Assembly: GCF_000011565.2 (NCBI RefSeq)
Contig: NC_005861.2
Coordinates: 186,001-250,000 of the forward strand
Length of the DNA stretch: 64,000 bases
Origin: Candidatus Protochlamydia amoebophila UWE25
GTDB taxonomy: Bacteria; Chlamydiota; Chlamydiia; Chlamydiales; Parachlamydiaceae
Direction: 5' to 3'
Under the pieces are notes generated by a model. It was given only the letters and a program-made list of their open reading frames with translations, was not told the origin of the DNA and ran no database searches. How positions within the stretch are numbered: the first letter of the stretch is position 1; the number at the start of each line of letters is the position of its first letter. This document shows, in pieces, positions 4,212-57,659 of the stretch. A program made the translations under genes and the position numbers.

Positions 4212-6854
4212 TTAGCATTGTTGTAAAAGTTTGGCGATAAGAGCTGTCCATCCTGTTTGGTGATTTGCTCCATGCCCTTCTCCTGTATCCCCATGGAAAA
4301 ATTCAAAAAAGAGAAAAAGATTCTGCCAATCCTCTTCGTGATTAAAGGGGCTATTTTTTTGGTAGATAGGTCGCGTTCCATCAGCACGTTTTAAAAATAA
4401 AGAGATAAGGCGATTAGAAAGTTGTTTAGAAATTTCTCCTAGGTTCATGAGATTTCCCGATCCAGTCGGAAATTCGACTTTAAGTGAATCTCCATAGTAG
4501 TGATAGAATTTTTGTAATGATTCAATTAAAAGATAATTAATAGGAAACCAGATGGGGCCTCTCCAGTTGGAGTTACCTCCGGCAATAAGGCGAAATTCTG
4601 CCTCTCCGGGATGATAACTAATAAAGTGTTCTTGATTCCAAATTTTTAATGAGTAGGGGTGCTTTTCATGATATTTAGAAAGAGAGCGAATCCCATATTC
4701 CGATAAAAACTCGTTTTCATCAAATAAATAGCCCAGAGTTTGAACAAGACGTTCTTTATCTAAAATAGATAAAAGGTGTCTCGCTCCTGTACTCGTTTCT
4801 TCTACTGAAGCTAGTGTACTTGTATAGTCCGGCCTTTCTTTCAAGAACCATTCTAATCGCTGTTTGTAAATGGGTAAAGCATCCAGAATTCGACGGTCAA
4901 TCGTTTCAACAGCTAAAATGGGTAATAAACCAACTAATGATCGAATACGCAAAGGAATGACATCATTACTTGTGTGAAGAGCATCATAGAAAAAACCATC
5001 TTCATTACACCATAGCGAATATCCCTTTTGCTCGGGTTTGATCATGGCACTGGCGATACGTAAGAAGTGTTCAAAAAACTTTGTGGCAGAATCTTGATAA
5101 ACGGGATTTGTTCTGGCCAGCTCGATAGAAATTTTCATCATTAAAATGCAGTAAAAACTCATCCAAGCTGTTCCATCCGCTTGATCAATGCGAGCATCAT
5201 TAAGAGGGGAGCTTCTGTCAAAAATACTGATGTTATCTAAACCTAGAAAGCCTCCTTGAAAAACATTATTTCCTTTTTCATCTTTTTGATTAACCCACCA
5301 GGTAAAATTAAGCAAAAGTTTATGAAAAATGGCTTCTAGAAAATTTCGATCAGGTTTTCCTGTTTGTTTCCCGTCAATTTTATAAATCCTCCAGGCTGCC
5401 CAAGCGAGAACGGGAGGATTGACATCGCTAAAGTTCCATTCGTAAGCGGGAAGTTGACCATTCGGATGCATATACCATTCTCTTGTCATAAGAATAAGCT
5501 GACGTTTGGCAAAGTCTGGATCAATCAATACCAGTGAGATACAATGAAATCCAAGATCCCAACTGGCATACCACGGATATTCCCATTTGTCGGGCATTGA
5601 AATAACATCAAAGTTGACAAGATGAATCCAACCTTGATTACGGTCATTTTGACGCTCCAGAGGAATTTGCTTATCTCCTCTTAACCATTGTTCAATATCA
5701 TAATAATAGAGTTGCTTGGACCATAAAAGTCCCGCAAAGGCCTGTCTTTGTAAATTTTTTGCATCTTTATCTAAGGCTTGATTTTGAACTTGTTCATAAA
5801 AAAGATCCGCTTCATGTTTTCTTAATGAAAAGATCTCATTAAATCCTTCAAATGGGTGTTTAAGGAAATTTTTACATAAACGGAGGTGAAAAATTTCTGT
5901 ATGTTTGGCAGGGAGGATCGATTTATATAATGCAGCGCCTTTGGAACCTTTTTTAGCAGGATTTACTGCTGTTTTGTCTTGATGGACTAAATAACGGTCA
6001 AAAGCATCTTTCACATAAGGTGTTGGATTGGGTTTTCCCATTAAACGTTCAAAGTTTGTATCATTTTCTGTGAAAATCCAATCGGGATTGTCTTGAGCAT
6101 AAAGATAATAGGTGCGTAAAGCAGGATGTTCGATTTTAATAAACGAACGATTGCCTTCTTGTTCTTGAAATAAAAAAGGCTTCGTCGGTATATCTTCCAT
6201 GGGACCTTCGGGGTATCCCCAACTCCACGTATTTCGAAACCAAACAGTCGGTAATAAGTAAAGAGGAGCAGCTTCAGACGCTTGATTAGTAATCGATAGA
6301 CGAATAAGAATATCTTCATGCCCTGCTTTTGCATATTCTATCTGGACATCGAAATAGCATTTATCTTGAAAGATGCCTGTATCGATTAGTTCATATTCGG
6401 GATCACGAGAAGAGCGCCTTTGATTTTCTTGAATAAGCTGTTCGTACGGGTAAGCTTGATGTGGATATTTATAGAGCATTTTCATATAACTATGAGTCGG
6501 AGTATTATCTAGGTAAAAATAATACTCTTTGACATCTTCACCATGATTGCCTTCTTGAGGATTTAAGCCAAAAAAACGTTCTTTAATAATCGGATCTTTT
6601 CCATTCCACAAAGCAACTGCAAAACAAACGTATTGATGCCGATCCGAAATTCCTCCAATTCCATCTTCATTCCAACGGTAGGCTCGCATTCTAGCATGGT
6701 CATGAGGGAAATAATTCCACGCATTTCCGGTTTCACTATAATCTTCACGCACAGTTCCCCAAGCACGATCACTTAAGTAAGGCCCCCATTTTTTCCAATT
6801 CGAATGACGTTGATGATGCTCTAGTAAACGTTGGTGTTCTGGAGATGAAGTCAT
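4212..6854 (-). CDS. GH63-like (MGH1-type) glycoside hydrolase / glucosidase
   Basis: About 880 residues, matching the large prokaryotic relatives of eukaryotic mannosyl-oligosaccharide glucosidase (GH63, an alpha/alpha-toroid of clan GH-G). An N-terminal beta-sandwich-like region (residues 1-350) precedes a helical catalytic region with family-typical stretches WEYPWYASWDLGFH, SPLNDARIDQADGTAWM and WRGPIWFPINYLL, and the end GEGHGANHQTGWTALIA. The acidic residues in YASWD and in the HGDTGEGHG loop are candidate catalytic acids. No signal peptide is seen, so it is probably cytosolic and acts on an alpha-glucoside. The frame extends to a TTG at 6869; the ATG at 6854 is chosen, but neither start has a clear ribosome binding site. 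The true substrate is unknown. Confidence 0.82.
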   Translation of the reverse strand: MTSSPEHQRLLEHHQRHSNWKKWGPYLSDRAWGTVREDYSETGNAWNYFPHDHARMRAYRWNEDGIGGISDRHQYVCFAVALWNGKDPIIKERFFGLNPQEGNHGEDVKEYYFYLDNTPTHSYMKMLYKYPHQAYPYEQLIQENQRRSSRDPEYELIDTGIFQDKCYFDVQIEYAKAGHEDILIRLSITNQASEAAPLYLLPTVWFRNTWSWGYPEGPMEDIPTKPFLFQEQEGNRSFIKIEHPALRTYYLYAQDNPDWIFTENDTNFERLMGKPNPTPYVKDAFDRYLVHQDKTAVNPAKKGSKGAALYKSILPAKHTEIFHLRLCKNFLKHPFEGFNEIFSLRKHEADLFYEQVQNQALDKDAKNLQRQAFAGLLWSKQLYYYDIEQWLRGDKQIPLERQNDRNQGWIHLVNFDVISMPDKWEYPWYASWDLGFHCISLVLIDPDFAKRQLILMTREWYMHPNGQLPAYEWNFSDVNPPVLAWAAWRIYKIDGKQTGKPDRNFLEAIFHKLLLNFTWWVNQKDEKGNNVFQGGFLGLDNISIFDRSSPLNDARIDQADGTAWMSFYCILMMKISIELARTNPVYQDSATKFFEHFLRIASAMIKPEQKGYSLWCNEDGFFYDALHTSNDVIPLRIRSLVGLLPILAVETIDRRILDALPIYKQRLEWFLKERPDYTSTLASVEETSTGARHLLSILDKERLVQTLGYLFDENEFLSEYGIRSLSKYHEKHPYSLKIWNQEHFISYHPGEAEFRLIAGGNSNWRGPIWFPINYLLIESLQKFYHYYGDSLKVEFPTGSGNLMNLGEISKQLSNRLISLFLKRADGTRPIYQKNSPFNHEEDWQNLFLFFEFFHGDTGEGHGANHQTGWTALIAKLLQQC

Positions 6855-42914: not shown

Positions 42915-43883
42915 ATGGAAAACTCTCCAAAAACTCGTCGCTTAAATATCCTACCAGATAATCCTGAAAATACTGGAGATGGTGTGGTAGGGCTTGGCCG
43001 CTTTCCTTCATGGTTGCACCGGCCACTTCCTAAAGGAAACCAACTTCAAATTACTGGGCAAGTCATCAACCAAAATCGCTTACACACTGTTTGCGAAGAG
43101 GCTAAATGTCCCAATCTCTTAGAATGTTGGACTAAAAAAACTGCCACATTTCTTGTAATGGGTAAAGAGTGTTCACGTAACTGTGGTTTTTGTGATATAG
43201 ACTTTTCAAAAAATCCTAAACCCCTAGATCGAAGTGAACCGTCGAGAGTTGCTTTATCTGTCCAACAGTTAGGATTAAAGCACGTTGTAATCACAATGGT
43301 AGCACGAGATGATTTGTCTGATGGAGGAAGTTCTCATCTCGTCGAGGTCATTGAGGCGATTAGGCAAACTAATGAAGATGTAACTATTGAGGTCTTAACT
43401 TCGGATTTTGAAGGAAATCGAAAGGCTCTAAGCTTTGTTTTACAAGCTAAACCTGAAATTTTTAATCATAATATTGAAACAGTTCGCCGTTTAACTCCAC
43501 GTGTTAGACATAAAGCCACTTATGAAAGAACTTTAAGTGTACTTGAACAAGCTGCCCAAAAGAAATATCACTCCCAACTTAAGGTTAAATCAGGGATAAT
43601 GGTGGGGTTAGGTGAGACTGAAGAAGAAATTTTTGAAACATTATTAGATTTAAAAAGGGTAGGATGTGAAATTGTCACCATTGGACAGTATTTACAACCT
43701 AATCGGCAAAAACTCCTTGTAAAATCTTTTGTTCATCCTGATATATTTAAAAAATATGAACAATATGGATTGAGTATAGGAATACCTCATCTTTATTGTG
43801 GACCTTTTGTTAGATCTAGCTATAACGCAAATTTAGTTCTTATGCGTGCAAATCAAAAAGAAGCAATTGTTAACAGCGAATAG
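42915..43883 (+). CDS. lipA: Lipoyl synthase
   Basis: A 322-residue radical SAM enzyme inserting two sulfur atoms into octanoyl-protein to make lipoate. Both cluster sites are present: the auxiliary CEEAKCPNLLEC and the radical SAM CSRNCGFCDI. FLVMGKECSR, VVITMVARDDLSDGGS and the C-terminal VRSSYNA (Ser ligand of the auxiliary cluster) agree with the family. A GTG three bases... codon before the ATG at 42915 is an alternative start behind the same AAGGA. As a consumer of an auxiliary Fe-S cluster it depends on the cell's Fe-S assembly machinery. Confidence 0.97.
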   Translation: MENSPKTRRLNILPDNPENTGDGVVGLGRFPSWLHRPLPKGNQLQITGQVINQNRLHTVCEEAKCPNLLECWTKKTATFLVMGKECSRNCGFCDIDFSKNPKPLDRSEPSRVALSVQQLGLKHVVITMVARDDLSDGGSSHLVEVIEAIRQTNEDVTIEVLTSDFEGNRKALSFVLQAKPEIFNHNIETVRRLTPRVRHKATYERTLSVLEQAAQKKYHSQLKVKSGIMVGLGETEEEIFETLLDLKRVGCEIVTIGQYLQPNRQKLLVKSFVHPDIFKKYEQYGLSIGIPHLYCGPFVRSSYNANLVLMRANQKEAIVNSE

Positions 43884-54479: not shown

Positions 54480-55160
54480 ATGGTTAAATTAATTTTGATG
54501 CGTCACGGCCAATCTCAGTGGAATTTAGCAAATTTGTTTACTGGTTGGGTAGACATTCCCCTGTCTTTTAAAGGAATTGAAGAGGCTATAGAGGCAGGAA
54601 AACAAATCAAAAATTACCCTATTGATTTAATTTTTACTTCTTCCTTAATTCGTGCTCAAATGACAGCAATGTTGGCAATGTCTGTTCATACATCTGGTAA
54701 AGTCCCTGTGATTCTTCACACAGGTGAGGGGCGACTAGAAGAATGGGCAAGTATTTATAGTTCCGAATCTCAATCTCAGACAATACCTGTCATTCGTGCT
54801 TGGGAATTGAATGAGCGGATGTATGGAGAATTACAAGGAATAAATAAAGAAGAAATGGCTAAAAAATATGGAGCTGAGCAGGTGCATATTTGGCGACGAA
54901 GTTTTGATGTTCCCCCTCCAAATGGAGAAAGTTTACAAATGACAGCAGCTCGGACCATACCTTATTTTGAAAACACCATTGTCCCTCATTTGAAAGAGAA
55001 GAAAAATATTTTTATTGCTGCACACGGAAATTCCCTGCGTTCGATTATCATGAAATTAGATGGGCTGACAACAGATCAAGTCGTTAAGTTGGAACTGGCA
55101 ACAGGGGTGCCTGTGATCTATGATTTCAATCACGATGAATATATTAAACAACAAAAGTAG
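54480..55160 (+). CDS. gpmA: 2,3-bisphosphoglycerate-dependent phosphoglycerate mutase
   Basis: A 226-residue glycolytic enzyme interconverting 3- and 2-phosphoglycerate. The phosphohistidine motif LMRHGQSQWNLANLFTGW is at residues 6-23, with LNERMYGELQG, WRRSFDVPPPNGES and the second catalytic His in AAHGNSLRSIIM. Length is slightly below E. coli GpmA (250), lacking the C-terminal tail. The ATG follows GGAGTAAAGGTAA. It heads gpmA-nifS-nifU, and the gap to the nifS-like gene is 6 bases. Confidence 0.96.
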   Translation: MVKLILMRHGQSQWNLANLFTGWVDIPLSFKGIEEAIEAGKQIKNYPIDLIFTSSLIRAQMTAMLAMSVHTSGKVPVILHTGEGRLEEWASIYSSESQSQTIPVIRAWELNERMYGELQGINKEEMAKKYGAEQVHIWRRSFDVPPPNGESLQMTAARTIPYFENTIVPHLKEKKNIFIAAHGNSLRSIIMKLDGLTTDQVVKLELATGVPVIYDFNHDEYIKQQK

Positions 55161-55166
55161 AATAGC

Positions 55167-56348
55167 ATGGTTAAATTGCCTATTTATTTAGATAACAGTA
55201 CAACTAGTCGTCCATCTGATTTATCAATTAGCCAAATGATGCCTTATTTAACAGATCGTTGGGGTCTTCCCTCAGCACCGCATCAAAAAGGTCAAGAGCT
55301 TTACCCAGTCTTGAAAGAGTGTTATAAAATTCTTTATGCATTTTTGGGAGCTCAAGAAGCAGATCAATTTGTATTGACCTCTTCAGGAGCAGAAGCTGTT
55401 AATCAGGTGATTTCTTCCGTTTATAGAGATGTCACGCTCCCAAGTGGCAAAAATCAATTTTTAACTTCTAATGCTGATGAAGCACCAGCGTTAATGGCAA
55501 TGGCACGCTTAGAGCCCTTAGGTTGCGTTGCAAAAATAATTGAATCGAATCAATATGGTATTGTAACTGCAGAAGCTCTAGCCGAGGCTATTTCACCGCG
55601 TACTGCGTTGATTTCTCTTTCTTGGGCTAATGGTTTGACAGGAGTTGTCCAGCCACTGGGAGAAATAATTGCGCTCTGTAAACAGCGTGACATCCGTCTT
55701 CATTTAGATGCCACGCATGTATTGGGTAAATTATTTTATGAGTTTGATGAACTTTCTGTAGATTTTATGACGTTTAATGGAGATCAGCTTCATGCTCCCA
55801 AAGGAACGGGGGGATTATATATTAAACAAGGAATTAAATGTTCTCCATTGATTGCTGGAGGTTCTGATCAAGCTGGGCTACGGGCTGGAGGTTTAAATAT
55901 GGCATCATTAGTGGCTCTAGCTTATGCTGCCAAAGAAACTTTAGAATGTCGTGATTTGCTTTGTACTGAGACAGCAAGACTCAAACATAAGTTGGAAACA
56001 GGAATTGTGAAAGCTTATCCTCAAGCCAGAATTTGTTTTAAAGAATGTGAACGATTGCCTCATTGCACAACTCTTTTGTTTCCCGGCATTGCTAATGAGG
56101 CATTACTGTTCAATCTTAATCGTAAAGGAGTTTATGCGAATATTGGAGGGGGAAATTTTCAACAACTTGGCTTACTATTAAGCGCTTGTGGCCTAGAAGA
56201 AAATTTAGCATATAGCGCCGTTTCATTTAGTTTATCTCGCTATACAACAGAGGAAGAAATTGATCGAGCTATTGAATTGGTTGTTGAAAGTGCTTGGCAG
56301 TTGAATCGAACTTCTTATAAATTATTTGAGACAGAGAGAAAAATTTAA
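55167..56348 (+). CDS. NifS/IscS-like aminotransferase-fold protein, catalytic residues replaced
   Basis: A 393-residue protein with clear cysteine desulfurase ancestry: YLDNSTTSRPSD, LTSSGAEAVNQVI, HLDATHVLGKLFYEF and AYSAVSFSLSRYTTEEEID. The PLP-lysine motif (GHKLYGPKG in IscS) here reads GDQLHAPKG, so Gln207 stands where the Schiff-base lysine should be. The segment that should hold the catalytic cysteine (GSACTS in IscS) is replaced by a shorter NIGGGNFQQLG without cysteine. By these criteria it should not act as a desulfurase, though some other role or another lysine cannot be excluded. It lies between gpmA and the NifU-like gene, whose own ligands are lost too. Confidence 0.85.
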   Translation: MVKLPIYLDNSTTSRPSDLSISQMMPYLTDRWGLPSAPHQKGQELYPVLKECYKILYAFLGAQEADQFVLTSSGAEAVNQVISSVYRDVTLPSGKNQFLTSNADEAPALMAMARLEPLGCVAKIIESNQYGIVTAEALAEAISPRTALISLSWANGLTGVVQPLGEIIALCKQRDIRLHLDATHVLGKLFYEFDELSVDFMTFNGDQLHAPKGTGGLYIKQGIKCSPLIAGGSDQAGLRAGGLNMASLVALAYAAKETLECRDLLCTETARLKHKLETGIVKAYPQARICFKECERLPHCTTLLFPGIANEALLFNLNRKGVYANIGGGNFQQLGLLLSACGLEENLAYSAVSFSLSRYTTEEEIDRAIELVVESAWQLNRTSYKLFETERKI

Positions 56349-56349
56349 T

Positions 56350-57141
56350 ATGACTTTGCAAACACTCACTCAAAGTTTTCCGTGGACACGTTATAGCAAA
56401 AAGTTACTAGCTAAAATTGATAAACCACGATGTATGGGTTTTTTTAATAAAGAACAATCAGAAGAAAGAGCGATGCGTTTAATTGAAGGGCGGGAAGGAA
56501 AATTAGCAGATGGTAATTCTGTTATTTTATATTGGCTTGTCGACCCCGATGATGGCATTATTGTTGATGCTAAATTTCAAGCTTATGGACAATCGGCACT
56601 TATCGGAGCTGCTGAAGTTGCATGTGAACTTGTGATCGGTAAAAATTATGATCAAGCTAAGCGAATTAGTGTAGATCTCCTCGATAAACAAGTAAGAGAT
56701 AAACCCGATGAAGCAGCTTTTCCTAAAGAGGCATCACCACATTTAAATATTATTTTAGGGGCGATGGAAAATGCGGCAGAAAAATGTTTAGACATTCCTC
56801 TTGCTTCTAGCTATGTGGCTTCTCCGACTCCTTTGGATATTGGAGAAGTTTTAGAAGGGGGGTATCCTGGATGGATTGAGCTTTCTTTAAAACAGAAAAT
56901 TAATTTGATTGAAGAAGTATTAGATCGAGATGTACGACCTTATATTGAGTTAGATGCTGGAGGAGTAGTAGTTTTAGATTTAGTCAATGATTGGGAACTT
57001 CATATTGCGTATCAAGGTTCTTGCACTTCTTGTTTTTCGGCGACAGGAACAACATTATCTTATATTCAACAGATAATAAGGGCTAAGCTACATGCAAGCC
57101 TTATGGTAATACCAGACTTATCCACTTTTCATCACCATTAG
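56350..57141 (+). CDS. NifU-like protein: ligand-less IscU domain fused to Nfu domain
   Basis: A 263-residue two-domain protein. Residues ~15-130 align with IscU (GIIVDAKFQAYG, AAEVACELVIGK), but all three scaffold cysteines are replaced: ADGN for ACGD, Gln81 in YGQSA for YGCGS, and PHLN for HCS. The C-terminal Nfu domain (residues ~175-255, IEEVLDRDVRPYIELDAGGVVVLDL) keeps its CxxC as C225-T-S-C228. It may thus still carry or transfer a cluster through the Nfu domain. The ATG at 56350 is one base after the NifS-like stop. Confidence 0.85.
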   Translation: MTLQTLTQSFPWTRYSKKLLAKIDKPRCMGFFNKEQSEERAMRLIEGREGKLADGNSVILYWLVDPDDGIIVDAKFQAYGQSALIGAAEVACELVIGKNYDQAKRISVDLLDKQVRDKPDEAAFPKEASPHLNIILGAMENAAEKCLDIPLASSYVASPTPLDIGEVLEGGYPGWIELSLKQKINLIEEVLDRDVRPYIELDAGGVVVLDLVNDWELHIAYQGSCTSCFSATGTTLSYIQQIIRAKLHASLMVIPDLSTFHHH

Positions 57142-57194: not shown

Positions 57195-57659
57195 TTATCT
57201 CGAAGTTTGGGTATTTGTAGAAAAAGAATTTTGAAGAATACAATTCCAAAACGAGGGGAAAAATGTTCTACGTGTCAAAATAGATACCCTTCCTTCTCCA
57301 ACTCTTTGAGAATTGCCATTAAATGCATGGCCGAGATCTCTCAATGAACTCATAAGGGTATTTGTAAAACCGACAAATTTATTTTCATCATCTTTTGTCA
57401 TATTTTGACTTATGACAAACAAATCATGTCCAATAGCAAAAACAAAAAATCCACTAACAGCTCTAAAAATTGCTGGAGAAGCTGAAGTTAGAGCTGTATA
57501 TGTTCTAATTACACCGACAGCCATTAAGCCTAAACTTAAAAAACGTAGTGCTATCAAATTCACTTTCAGATCAAATGACCTTTGCTCAGGATTTTTTTGA
57601 AAGAAAACCTTTAAATATTCAACATCTGCCACTACAGTGTTATAAAACCCTTGAATCAT
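57195..57659 (-). CDS. Small membrane protein of unknown function
   Basis: A 154-residue protein with two hydrophobic segments (ALRFLSLGLMAVGVIRTYTAL and AIFRAVSGFFVFAIGHDLFVI) separated by a short loop, a soluble N-terminus and a basic, Ser/Arg-rich C-terminus (QRVGEGRVSILTRRTF). Closely spaced paired helices recall chlamydial inclusion membrane proteins, but the spacing and the lack of a recognisable secretion signal leave this as speculation. No ribosome binding site is clear. It is a single gene, convergent with the NifU-like gene. Confidence 0.5.
   Translation of the reverse strand: MIQGFYNTVVADVEYLKVFFQKNPEQRSFDLKVNLIALRFLSLGLMAVGVIRTYTALTSASPAIFRAVSGFFVFAIGHDLFVISQNMTKDDENKFVGFTNTLMSSLRDLGHAFNGNSQRVGEGRVSILTRRTFFPSFWNCILQNSFSTNTQTSR

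What the first reader, a model, noticed from the sequence alone, without database searches (positions are those of the whole stretch)
55167..57141. Adjacent NifS-like and NifU-like genes have both lost the residues for classical Fe-S assembly
Read directly: the NifS-like protein has Gln207 where cysteine desulfurases have the PLP-binding lysine (GDQLHAPKG against GHKLYGPKG) and no cysteine in the mobile catalytic loop. The NifU-like neighbour has Asp, Gln and Leu in place of the three IscU scaffold cysteines, yet keeps an Nfu CxxC (C225, C228). Both genes keep full length, good coding sequence and tight coupling. Loss of catalysis in both partners, with the complex apparently maintained, suggests a retained non-catalytic role, for example a scaffold or cluster-carrier pair fed by a SUF system. 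Which role is inference.
Basis: partly seen in the sequence, partly recalled or inferred. Interest (0 to 1): 0.65.

Follow-up and report, generated by a model that had tools for sequence, protein, structure and literature searches.

The report
Inactive NifS-NifU pair shared by chlamydiae
Nearly all chlamydiae carry two linked genes, annotated as makers of iron-sulfur clusters, that lost the residues needed to make clusters before the sampled families diverged, yet evolution protects them and keeps one cluster-binding motif untouched, so they probably carry ready-made clusters instead.

Summary
The NifS-like protein (55167-56348) has Gln207 at the PLP-lysine position and no cysteine at the catalytic-loop position. 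The NifU-like protein (56350-57141) has Asp54, Gln81 and Leu132 at the IscU ligand positions and keeps C225xxC228. In 126 NifS-like and 132 NifU-like relatives from 25 chlamydial families, the lysine column is Lys in only 6, the catalytic-Cys column is never Cys, the IscU Cys columns are Cys in at most 1, and the Nfu CxxC is present in 132/132. The lysine and catalytic-Cys columns are among the most variable.

This is not decay: dN/dS is 0.02-0.15, like the neighbouring enzyme gene; the operon gpmA-nifS-nifU is conserved, most nifU starts overlap or abut the nifS stop, and one genome has the two fused. SufBCDS and a second intact desulfurase exist in this genome.

Best reading: an Nfu-type [4Fe-4S] carrier fed by SUF, with a dead IscU domain as adapter (compare E. 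coli NfuA) and a PLP-less NifS dimer as platform (compare A. fulgidus IscS). The folds are supported. The complex, the cluster and the clients are inferred; one client test (LipA) gave no link. New variant of a known kind.

The parts
54480..55160 (+). gpmA (phosphoglycerate mutase), first gene of the conserved operon
   Evidence: Same strand as the nifS-like gene, next to it, in 147 of 153 loci with enough sequence; stop to next ATG 6 nt
55167..56348 (+). NifS-like pseudo-desulfurase, 393 aa
   Evidence: Aminotran_5, 141 bits, and NCBIfam NifS/IscS models far below their curated cut-offs; residue table; relative L028 matches H. pylori NifS in fold, TMt 0.97
55479..55481 (+). Glu105 at the position of PLP-stacking His104 of IscS
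   Evidence: Glu in 76, Asp in 18, Gln in 13 of 126 relatives
55785..55787 (+). Gln207 at the position of PLP-binding Lys206 of IscS
   Evidence: Lys in only 6 of 126; gap in 11; entropy percentile 0.90
56145..56162 (+). GGGNFQ loop replacing the catalytic-cysteine loop (GSACTS in IscS)
   Evidence: Cys328 column never Cys among the commonest residues and not seen as Cys in the family table; flanking Gly-Gly-Gly and Gln conserved
56223..56225 (+). Ser353 at the position of substrate-binding Arg354 of IscS
   Evidence: Ser in 98 of 126
56350..57141 (+). NifU-like protein, 263 aa, start codon 1 nt after the nifS-like stop codon
   Evidence: NifU_N 53.5 bits and NifU (Nfu) 52.7 bits; coordinates
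56392..56784 (+). Degenerate IscU-like domain
   Evidence: AF2 pLDDT mostly above 90; Foldseek to human and E. coli IscU, TMt 0.77-0.88
56509..56511 (+). Asp54 at the position of IscU Cys37
   Evidence: Cys in 1 of 132
56590..56592 (+). Gln81 at the position of IscU Cys63
   Evidence: Cys in 0 of 132
56743..56745 (+). Leu132 (or His131) at the position of IscU Cys106
   Evidence: Cys in 1 of 132
56785..56787 (+). Cys146, a conserved cysteine of the degenerate domain not equivalent to an IscU ligand
   Evidence: Cys in 119 of 132 relatives
56911..57111 (+). Nfu domain
   Evidence: PF01106, 52.7 bits, the only copy in this genome
57022..57033 (+). Cys225-x-x-Cys228, the [Fe-S]-binding motif of Nfu domains
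   Evidence: CxxC in 132 of 132 relatives

Best explanation
The pair is a phylum-wide relic of a NIF-type assembly system turned into an Fe-S carrier. Shown: the NifS-like protein lacks the residues for PLP chemistry and sulfur transfer, the NifU-like protein lacks the scaffold ligands, both keep their folds, their operon and strong purifying selection, and the Nfu CxxC never changes. Inferred: SufBCDS makes the cluster; two Nfu domains bind a [4Fe-4S] cluster through their CxxC motifs and hand it to client enzymes; the dead IscU domain serves as an adapter, as the degenerated A-type domain of E. coli NfuA does; the PLP-less NifS dimer is the platform that holds two NifU-like chains, as Lys-less A. 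fulgidus IscS still binds IscU.
For: Residue losses and invariant CxxC in 126/132 relatives from 25 families. Lysine and Cys328 columns at the 90th and 93rd percentile of variability. dN/dS 0.03-0.12 (NifS-like) and 0.02-0.15 (NifU-like) against 0.04-0.11 for gpmA. Median S-stop to U-start distance -4 nt; S upstream of U in 157 of 161 loci; a natural fusion (L154). Distances of S and U correlate after removing gpmA (partial r 0.58, 0/2000 permutations). Only one Nfu domain and one A-type carrier in the genome. SufBCDS in the genome, SufB/D in 219/234 genomes. Folds kept. Precedents: NfuA's degenerated A-type domain targets the carrier to apo-proteins (PMC8593673); A. fulgidus IscS has Asp for Lys, has no desulfurase activity, and still sits on IscU (PMC7585200).
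Against: No direct evidence of a bound cluster, a complex or a client. The one-chain model places the two proteins with only moderate confidence (pTM 0.66). Residues matching the E. coli IscS-IscU contacts are not more conserved than average. LipA does not track the pair: most genomes without the pair keep LipA. Unlike A. fulgidus IscS, the NifS-like protein offers no loop cysteine as ligand. Several lineages live without the pair while keeping SUF, so it is not indispensable.
Confidence: 0.6

Rival explanations
1. Only the Nfu domain matters for Fe-S; the NifS-like protein has been turned to a different ligand or metal in the old PLP pocket, and the pair is a sensor or regulator of Fe-S or cysteine status rather than a carrier.
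For: Some pocket positions carry new conserved residues instead of random ones: H104 to E/D/Q in 107 of 126, N155 to G in 83, R354 to S in 98, D180 kept in 106, and a conserved GGGxFQ loop.
Against: Other pocket positions (203, 205, 206, 243) vary freely, and the signature EGDHND at the pocket positions is found in a minority of relatives. Several lineages delete the 206 loop altogether.
Confidence: 0.15
2. The NifS-like protein is a non-catalytic competitor or regulator that binds partners of the active desulfurases (SufS, the second NifS) and tunes sulfur flow; the NifU-like protein is its adapter.
For: The genome has two intact desulfurases (L001, L002); pseudoenzymes commonly act this way (general knowledge).
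Against: The positions that contact TusA in IscS are more variable than average (P = 0.99). The distance correlation and the fusion tie it to the NifU-like protein.
Confidence: 0.1
3. Plain decay of a redundant system.
For: The locus is decayed in G190 and absent in other genomes.
Against: dN/dS far below 1 and like the neighbouring enzyme, full length, and 207 of 234 genomes with a NifU-like hit.
Confidence: 0.03
4. The NifS-like protein still uses PLP non-covalently or has another PLP chemistry.
For: Asp180 (PLP N1 contact) is kept in 106 of 126; six relatives have Lys at 206.
Against: Phosphate and ring contacts T76, H104, S203, H205, T243 are lost or free to vary, and none of the six Lys carriers has the other catalytic residues.
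Confidence: 0.05

Closest known systems
Helicobacter pylori / epsilonproteobacterial NifS-NifU system
   Same: Best sequence and fold match of the NifS-like protein (250.8 bits to 5wt2; TMt 0.97 for relative L028); gene pair; NifU with IscU and Nfu domains (H. pylori gene pair from general knowledge)
   Different: H. pylori NifS is an active desulfurase; here lysine, loop cysteine and IscU ligands are gone, and there are no cysteines for a central [2Fe-2S] domain
E. coli/Azotobacter NfuA carrier
   Same: Functional Nfu domain behind a degenerated scaffold/carrier-type domain used for targeting (PMC8593673)
   Different: NfuA's dead domain is A-type (PF01521), here it is IscU-type; NfuA has no pseudo-desulfurase partner
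Archaeoglobus fulgidus IscS (IscS-IscU)2
   Same: Natural loss of the PLP lysine (Asp instead), no desulfurase activity, still complexes its IscU (PMC7585200; PDB 4eb5, 4hvk, 4r5f)
   Different: A. [quoted passage not shown] here the loop cysteine and the IscU ligands are gone
Stand-alone Nfu (S. aureus, H. pylori, cyanobacteria)
   Same: CxxC Nfu domain as likely carrier (PMC8593673)
   Different: Single-domain proteins without a NifS partner

Membership tests
Cysteine desulfurase NifS/IscS (NCBIfam TIGR03402, TIGR02006) | Score above curated equivalog cut-off | tested here: not met
   244 bits against 530.75; 172 against 643.2
Cysteine desulfurase NifS/IscS (NCBIfam TIGR03402, TIGR02006) | PLP-binding lysine and loop cysteine | tested here: not met
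   Q207 and N330; absent in nearly all relatives
Cysteine desulfurase NifS/IscS (NCBIfam TIGR03402, TIGR02006) | Fold type I aminotransferase class V fold | tested here: met
   PF00266 141 bits; TMt 0.97 to 5wt2 for the L028 orthologue
NifU proper (TIGR02000) / IscU scaffold | Score above curated cut-off | tested here: not met
   69.3 bits against 273.3; IscU 32.5 against 192.4
NifU proper (TIGR02000) / IscU scaffold | Three conserved Cys ligands and Asp39 | tested here: not met
   Replaced by D54, Q81, H131/L132 and N56
NifU proper (TIGR02000) / IscU scaffold | IscU fold of the N-terminal domain | tested here: met
   TMt up to 0.88 to human ISCU
Nfu-type Fe-S carrier | Nfu domain (PF01106) above gathering score | tested here: met
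   52.7 bits against 27
Nfu-type Fe-S carrier | CxxC motif | tested here: met
   C225, C228; 132 of 132 relatives
Nfu-type Fe-S carrier | Binds and transfers a [4Fe-4S] cluster | not testable with these tools
   Needs purified protein
NfuA (degenerated A-type plus Nfu) | PF01521-type N-terminal domain | tested here: not met
   N-terminal domain is NifU_N/IscU; the genome's only PF01521 hit lies elsewhere
A. fulgidus-type Lys-less IscS | PLP lysine lost but Cys kept as cluster ligand | tested here: not met
   Lysine lost, but the loop Cys is also lost

The most novel reading that the evidence does not exclude
An ancestral chlamydial NIF machine was rebuilt as a new two-protein Fe-S carrier in which the former desulfurase dimer, with its PLP pocket turned to another ligand or metal (E105, D181, H184, D206 region), senses or stabilises cluster loading of the Nfu domains.
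Probability: 0.1. Interest if true: 0.8.

Novelty: new variant of a known kind. Interest (0 to 1): 0.58.

Why it matters
Genes called nifS and nifU sit in nearly every chlamydial genome and NifU/NifS have been listed as a coherent core system (PMC3899948), so models of chlamydial iron and sulfur metabolism may credit them with making clusters. The data say this pair cannot do so by any known chemistry, which leaves SUF as the only recognisable assembly route found in this genome and makes the pair its likely delivery arm. It would be a case where both the enzyme and the scaffold of an assembly pair lost catalysis in a common ancestor of 25 families and were kept since. It gives a directly testable question on how obligate intracellular bacteria with very few other carriers deliver Fe-S clusters.

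Tried and rejected
Shifted catalytic residues: none. Decay: rejected by dN/dS and conservation, except local losses. Intact IscS/IscU in chlamydiae (L067/L068 from G191/G185): set aside as probable contaminant contigs, judged by eye from their other genes. Link to lipoyl synthase by co-occurrence: not seen. Preferential conservation of the IscS-IscU interface: not seen. Complex prediction as one chain read through the nifS stop of L028: pTM 0.66, inconclusive. Literature: no paper found in the held library reports the active-site loss; subscription papers are not covered.

Full report
WHAT IS THERE. The window lies at 186001-250000 of a 2.44-Mb chromosome; the nearest named relative, at 80% identity, is a Candidatus Protochlamydia MAG. 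At 54480-57141 (+) stand three genes: gpmA, a NifS-like gene (55167-56348, 393 aa) and a NifU-like gene (56350-57141, 263 aa), with 6 nt and 1 nt between stop and next start.

THE RESIDUES. With E. coli IscS and IscU as rulers, the NifS-like protein has Q207 for Lys206, E105 for His104, G156 for Asn155, H184 for Gln183, N330 for Cys328 and S353 for Arg354; Asp180 is kept. The NifU-like protein has D54, Q81 and H131/L132 for the three IscU cysteines, Asn for Asp39, and keeps C225 and C228 of the Nfu domain. Two other desulfurases in the same genome (SufS, L001; a second NifS-family protein, L002) keep lysine and cysteine.

HOW WIDE. A phylum search found the NifU-like protein in 207 of 234 genomes (a handful of these hits are fragments or the two suspected contaminants below). 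From fetched loci, 126 NifS-like and 132 NifU-like proteins of 25 families were aligned. The lysine column holds Lys in 6 (none with the other catalytic residues) and a gap in 11. No Cys was found among the residues of the Cys328 column shown, and Cys occurs within six columns in only 13. The IscU cysteine columns are Cys in 1, 0 and 1 of 132. CxxC is present in 132 of 132. The lysine and Cys328 columns are at the 90th and 93rd percentile of variability in the protein, the opposite of an enzyme. So the loss most simply predates the divergence of the sampled families and was not followed by one fixed replacement at these two sites, although H104 to E/D/Q, N155 to G, R354 to S and a GGGxFQ loop are widely shared.

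NOT DECAY. Pairwise dN/dS in pairs with unsaturated dS is 0.03-0.12 (NifS-like), 0.02-0.15 (NifU-like) and 0.04-0.11 (gpmA). gpmA stands with S on the same strand in 147 of 153 loci, and S stands upstream of U in 157 of 161. The commonest overlap is 4 nt. One genome (G133) has S and U as one 519-aa frame at the same place. Protein distances of S and U correlate beyond gpmA (partial r 0.58, 0 of 2000 permutations). Real decay exists as contrast: in G190 the place between gpmA and birA holds only a broken Nfu fragment, and about two dozen genomes, many in one family, have no hit even with a profile; some of these are incomplete assemblies.

SURROUNDINGS IN THE CELL. sufB, sufC, sufD and sufS stand together in this genome (identified from SufBD and Aminotran_5 hits and by reading), and SufB/D is in 219 of 234 chlamydial genomes. 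There is one Nfu domain (this one) and one A-type-like protein. A-type carriers were reported absent from nearly all of the PVC group (PMC2682760).

STRUCTURE. AF2 gives the NifU-like protein pLDDT 89.7, two confident domains and a loose linker (residues about 150-170). Foldseek puts the first on IscU (TMt to 0.88). A one-chain model of both proteins, made by reading through the nifS stop of relative L028, has pLDDT 93.6 but pTM 0.66, so the relative placement is not settled. Its NifS part lies on H. pylori NifS (TMt 0.97). Columns matching IscS-IscU contacts of E. coli (PMC2854127) are not more conserved than average; TusA-contact columns are more variable.

HOW IT MOST LIKELY WORKS. The invariant CxxC is the only known Fe-S-binding feature left in the pair. 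The nearest working precedents are NfuA, whose degenerated A-type domain targets the Nfu domain to clients (PMC8593673), and A. fulgidus IscS, which lost the PLP lysine and desulfurase activity and still sits on IscU (PMC7585200). I therefore favour a SUF-fed Nfu carrier with a dead IscU adapter and a PLP-less NifS platform. Shown: losses, conservation, selection, operon, folds, SUF. Inferred: complex, cluster, client delivery. A co-occurrence test with LipA gave no link.

NOVELTY. Known separately: degenerated adapter domains on Nfu, and Lys-less IscS. Not found in the held literature: the joint loss in both partners and its conservation across a phylum. Hence a new variant of a known kind. 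Limits: named identities of G genomes are not given by the tool, so 'Chlamydia' for family f4 (1.0-1.4 Mb genomes) is inference; the genome-contig scan used one pattern; subscription papers were not searchable.

Noticed in passing
L154 4078-5634 (-), genome G133: NifS-like (truncated) and NifU-like fused in one 519-aa frame between gpmA and birA.
   Followed up: partly
L156 about 5500-6340, genome G190: The nifSU place is decayed to a broken Nfu fragment between intact gpmA and birA.
   Followed up: partly
L152 5505-7026 (G191), L153 2792-3172 (G185): Canonical IscS/IscU genes on contigs whose other genes look foreign (large ADP-forming acyl-CoA-synthetase-like, NosD-like); probable contamination of the assemblies. 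G191 also has no SufB/D hit.
   Followed up: partly
L081, L083, L086, L098, L097, L112, L114, L131, L147: Several lineages deleted part or all of the loop around the former PLP lysine.
   Followed up: no
L091, L104, L105, L116, L118, L050: Six relatives have Lys at the PLP-lysine column without the other catalytic residues.
   Followed up: partly
window 56785-56787: Cys146 of the NifU-like protein is conserved in 119 of 132 relatives although it matches no IscU ligand.
   Followed up: no
L151 4282-5448: A second intact NifS-family desulfurase stands right behind a gene that looks like a PP2C phosphatase.
   Followed up: no
L136 1863-3374; L074 2817-3214: About 1.5 kb and 0.4 kb separate the NifS-like and NifU-like frames in these genomes, unlike the usual overlap.
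   Followed up: no
window 42996-43859: Lipoyl synthase gene (LipA, 383.9 bits).
   Followed up: partly
window 57195-57659 (-): A 154-aa reading frame after the pair with matches only in a few loci of near relatives.
   Followed up: no
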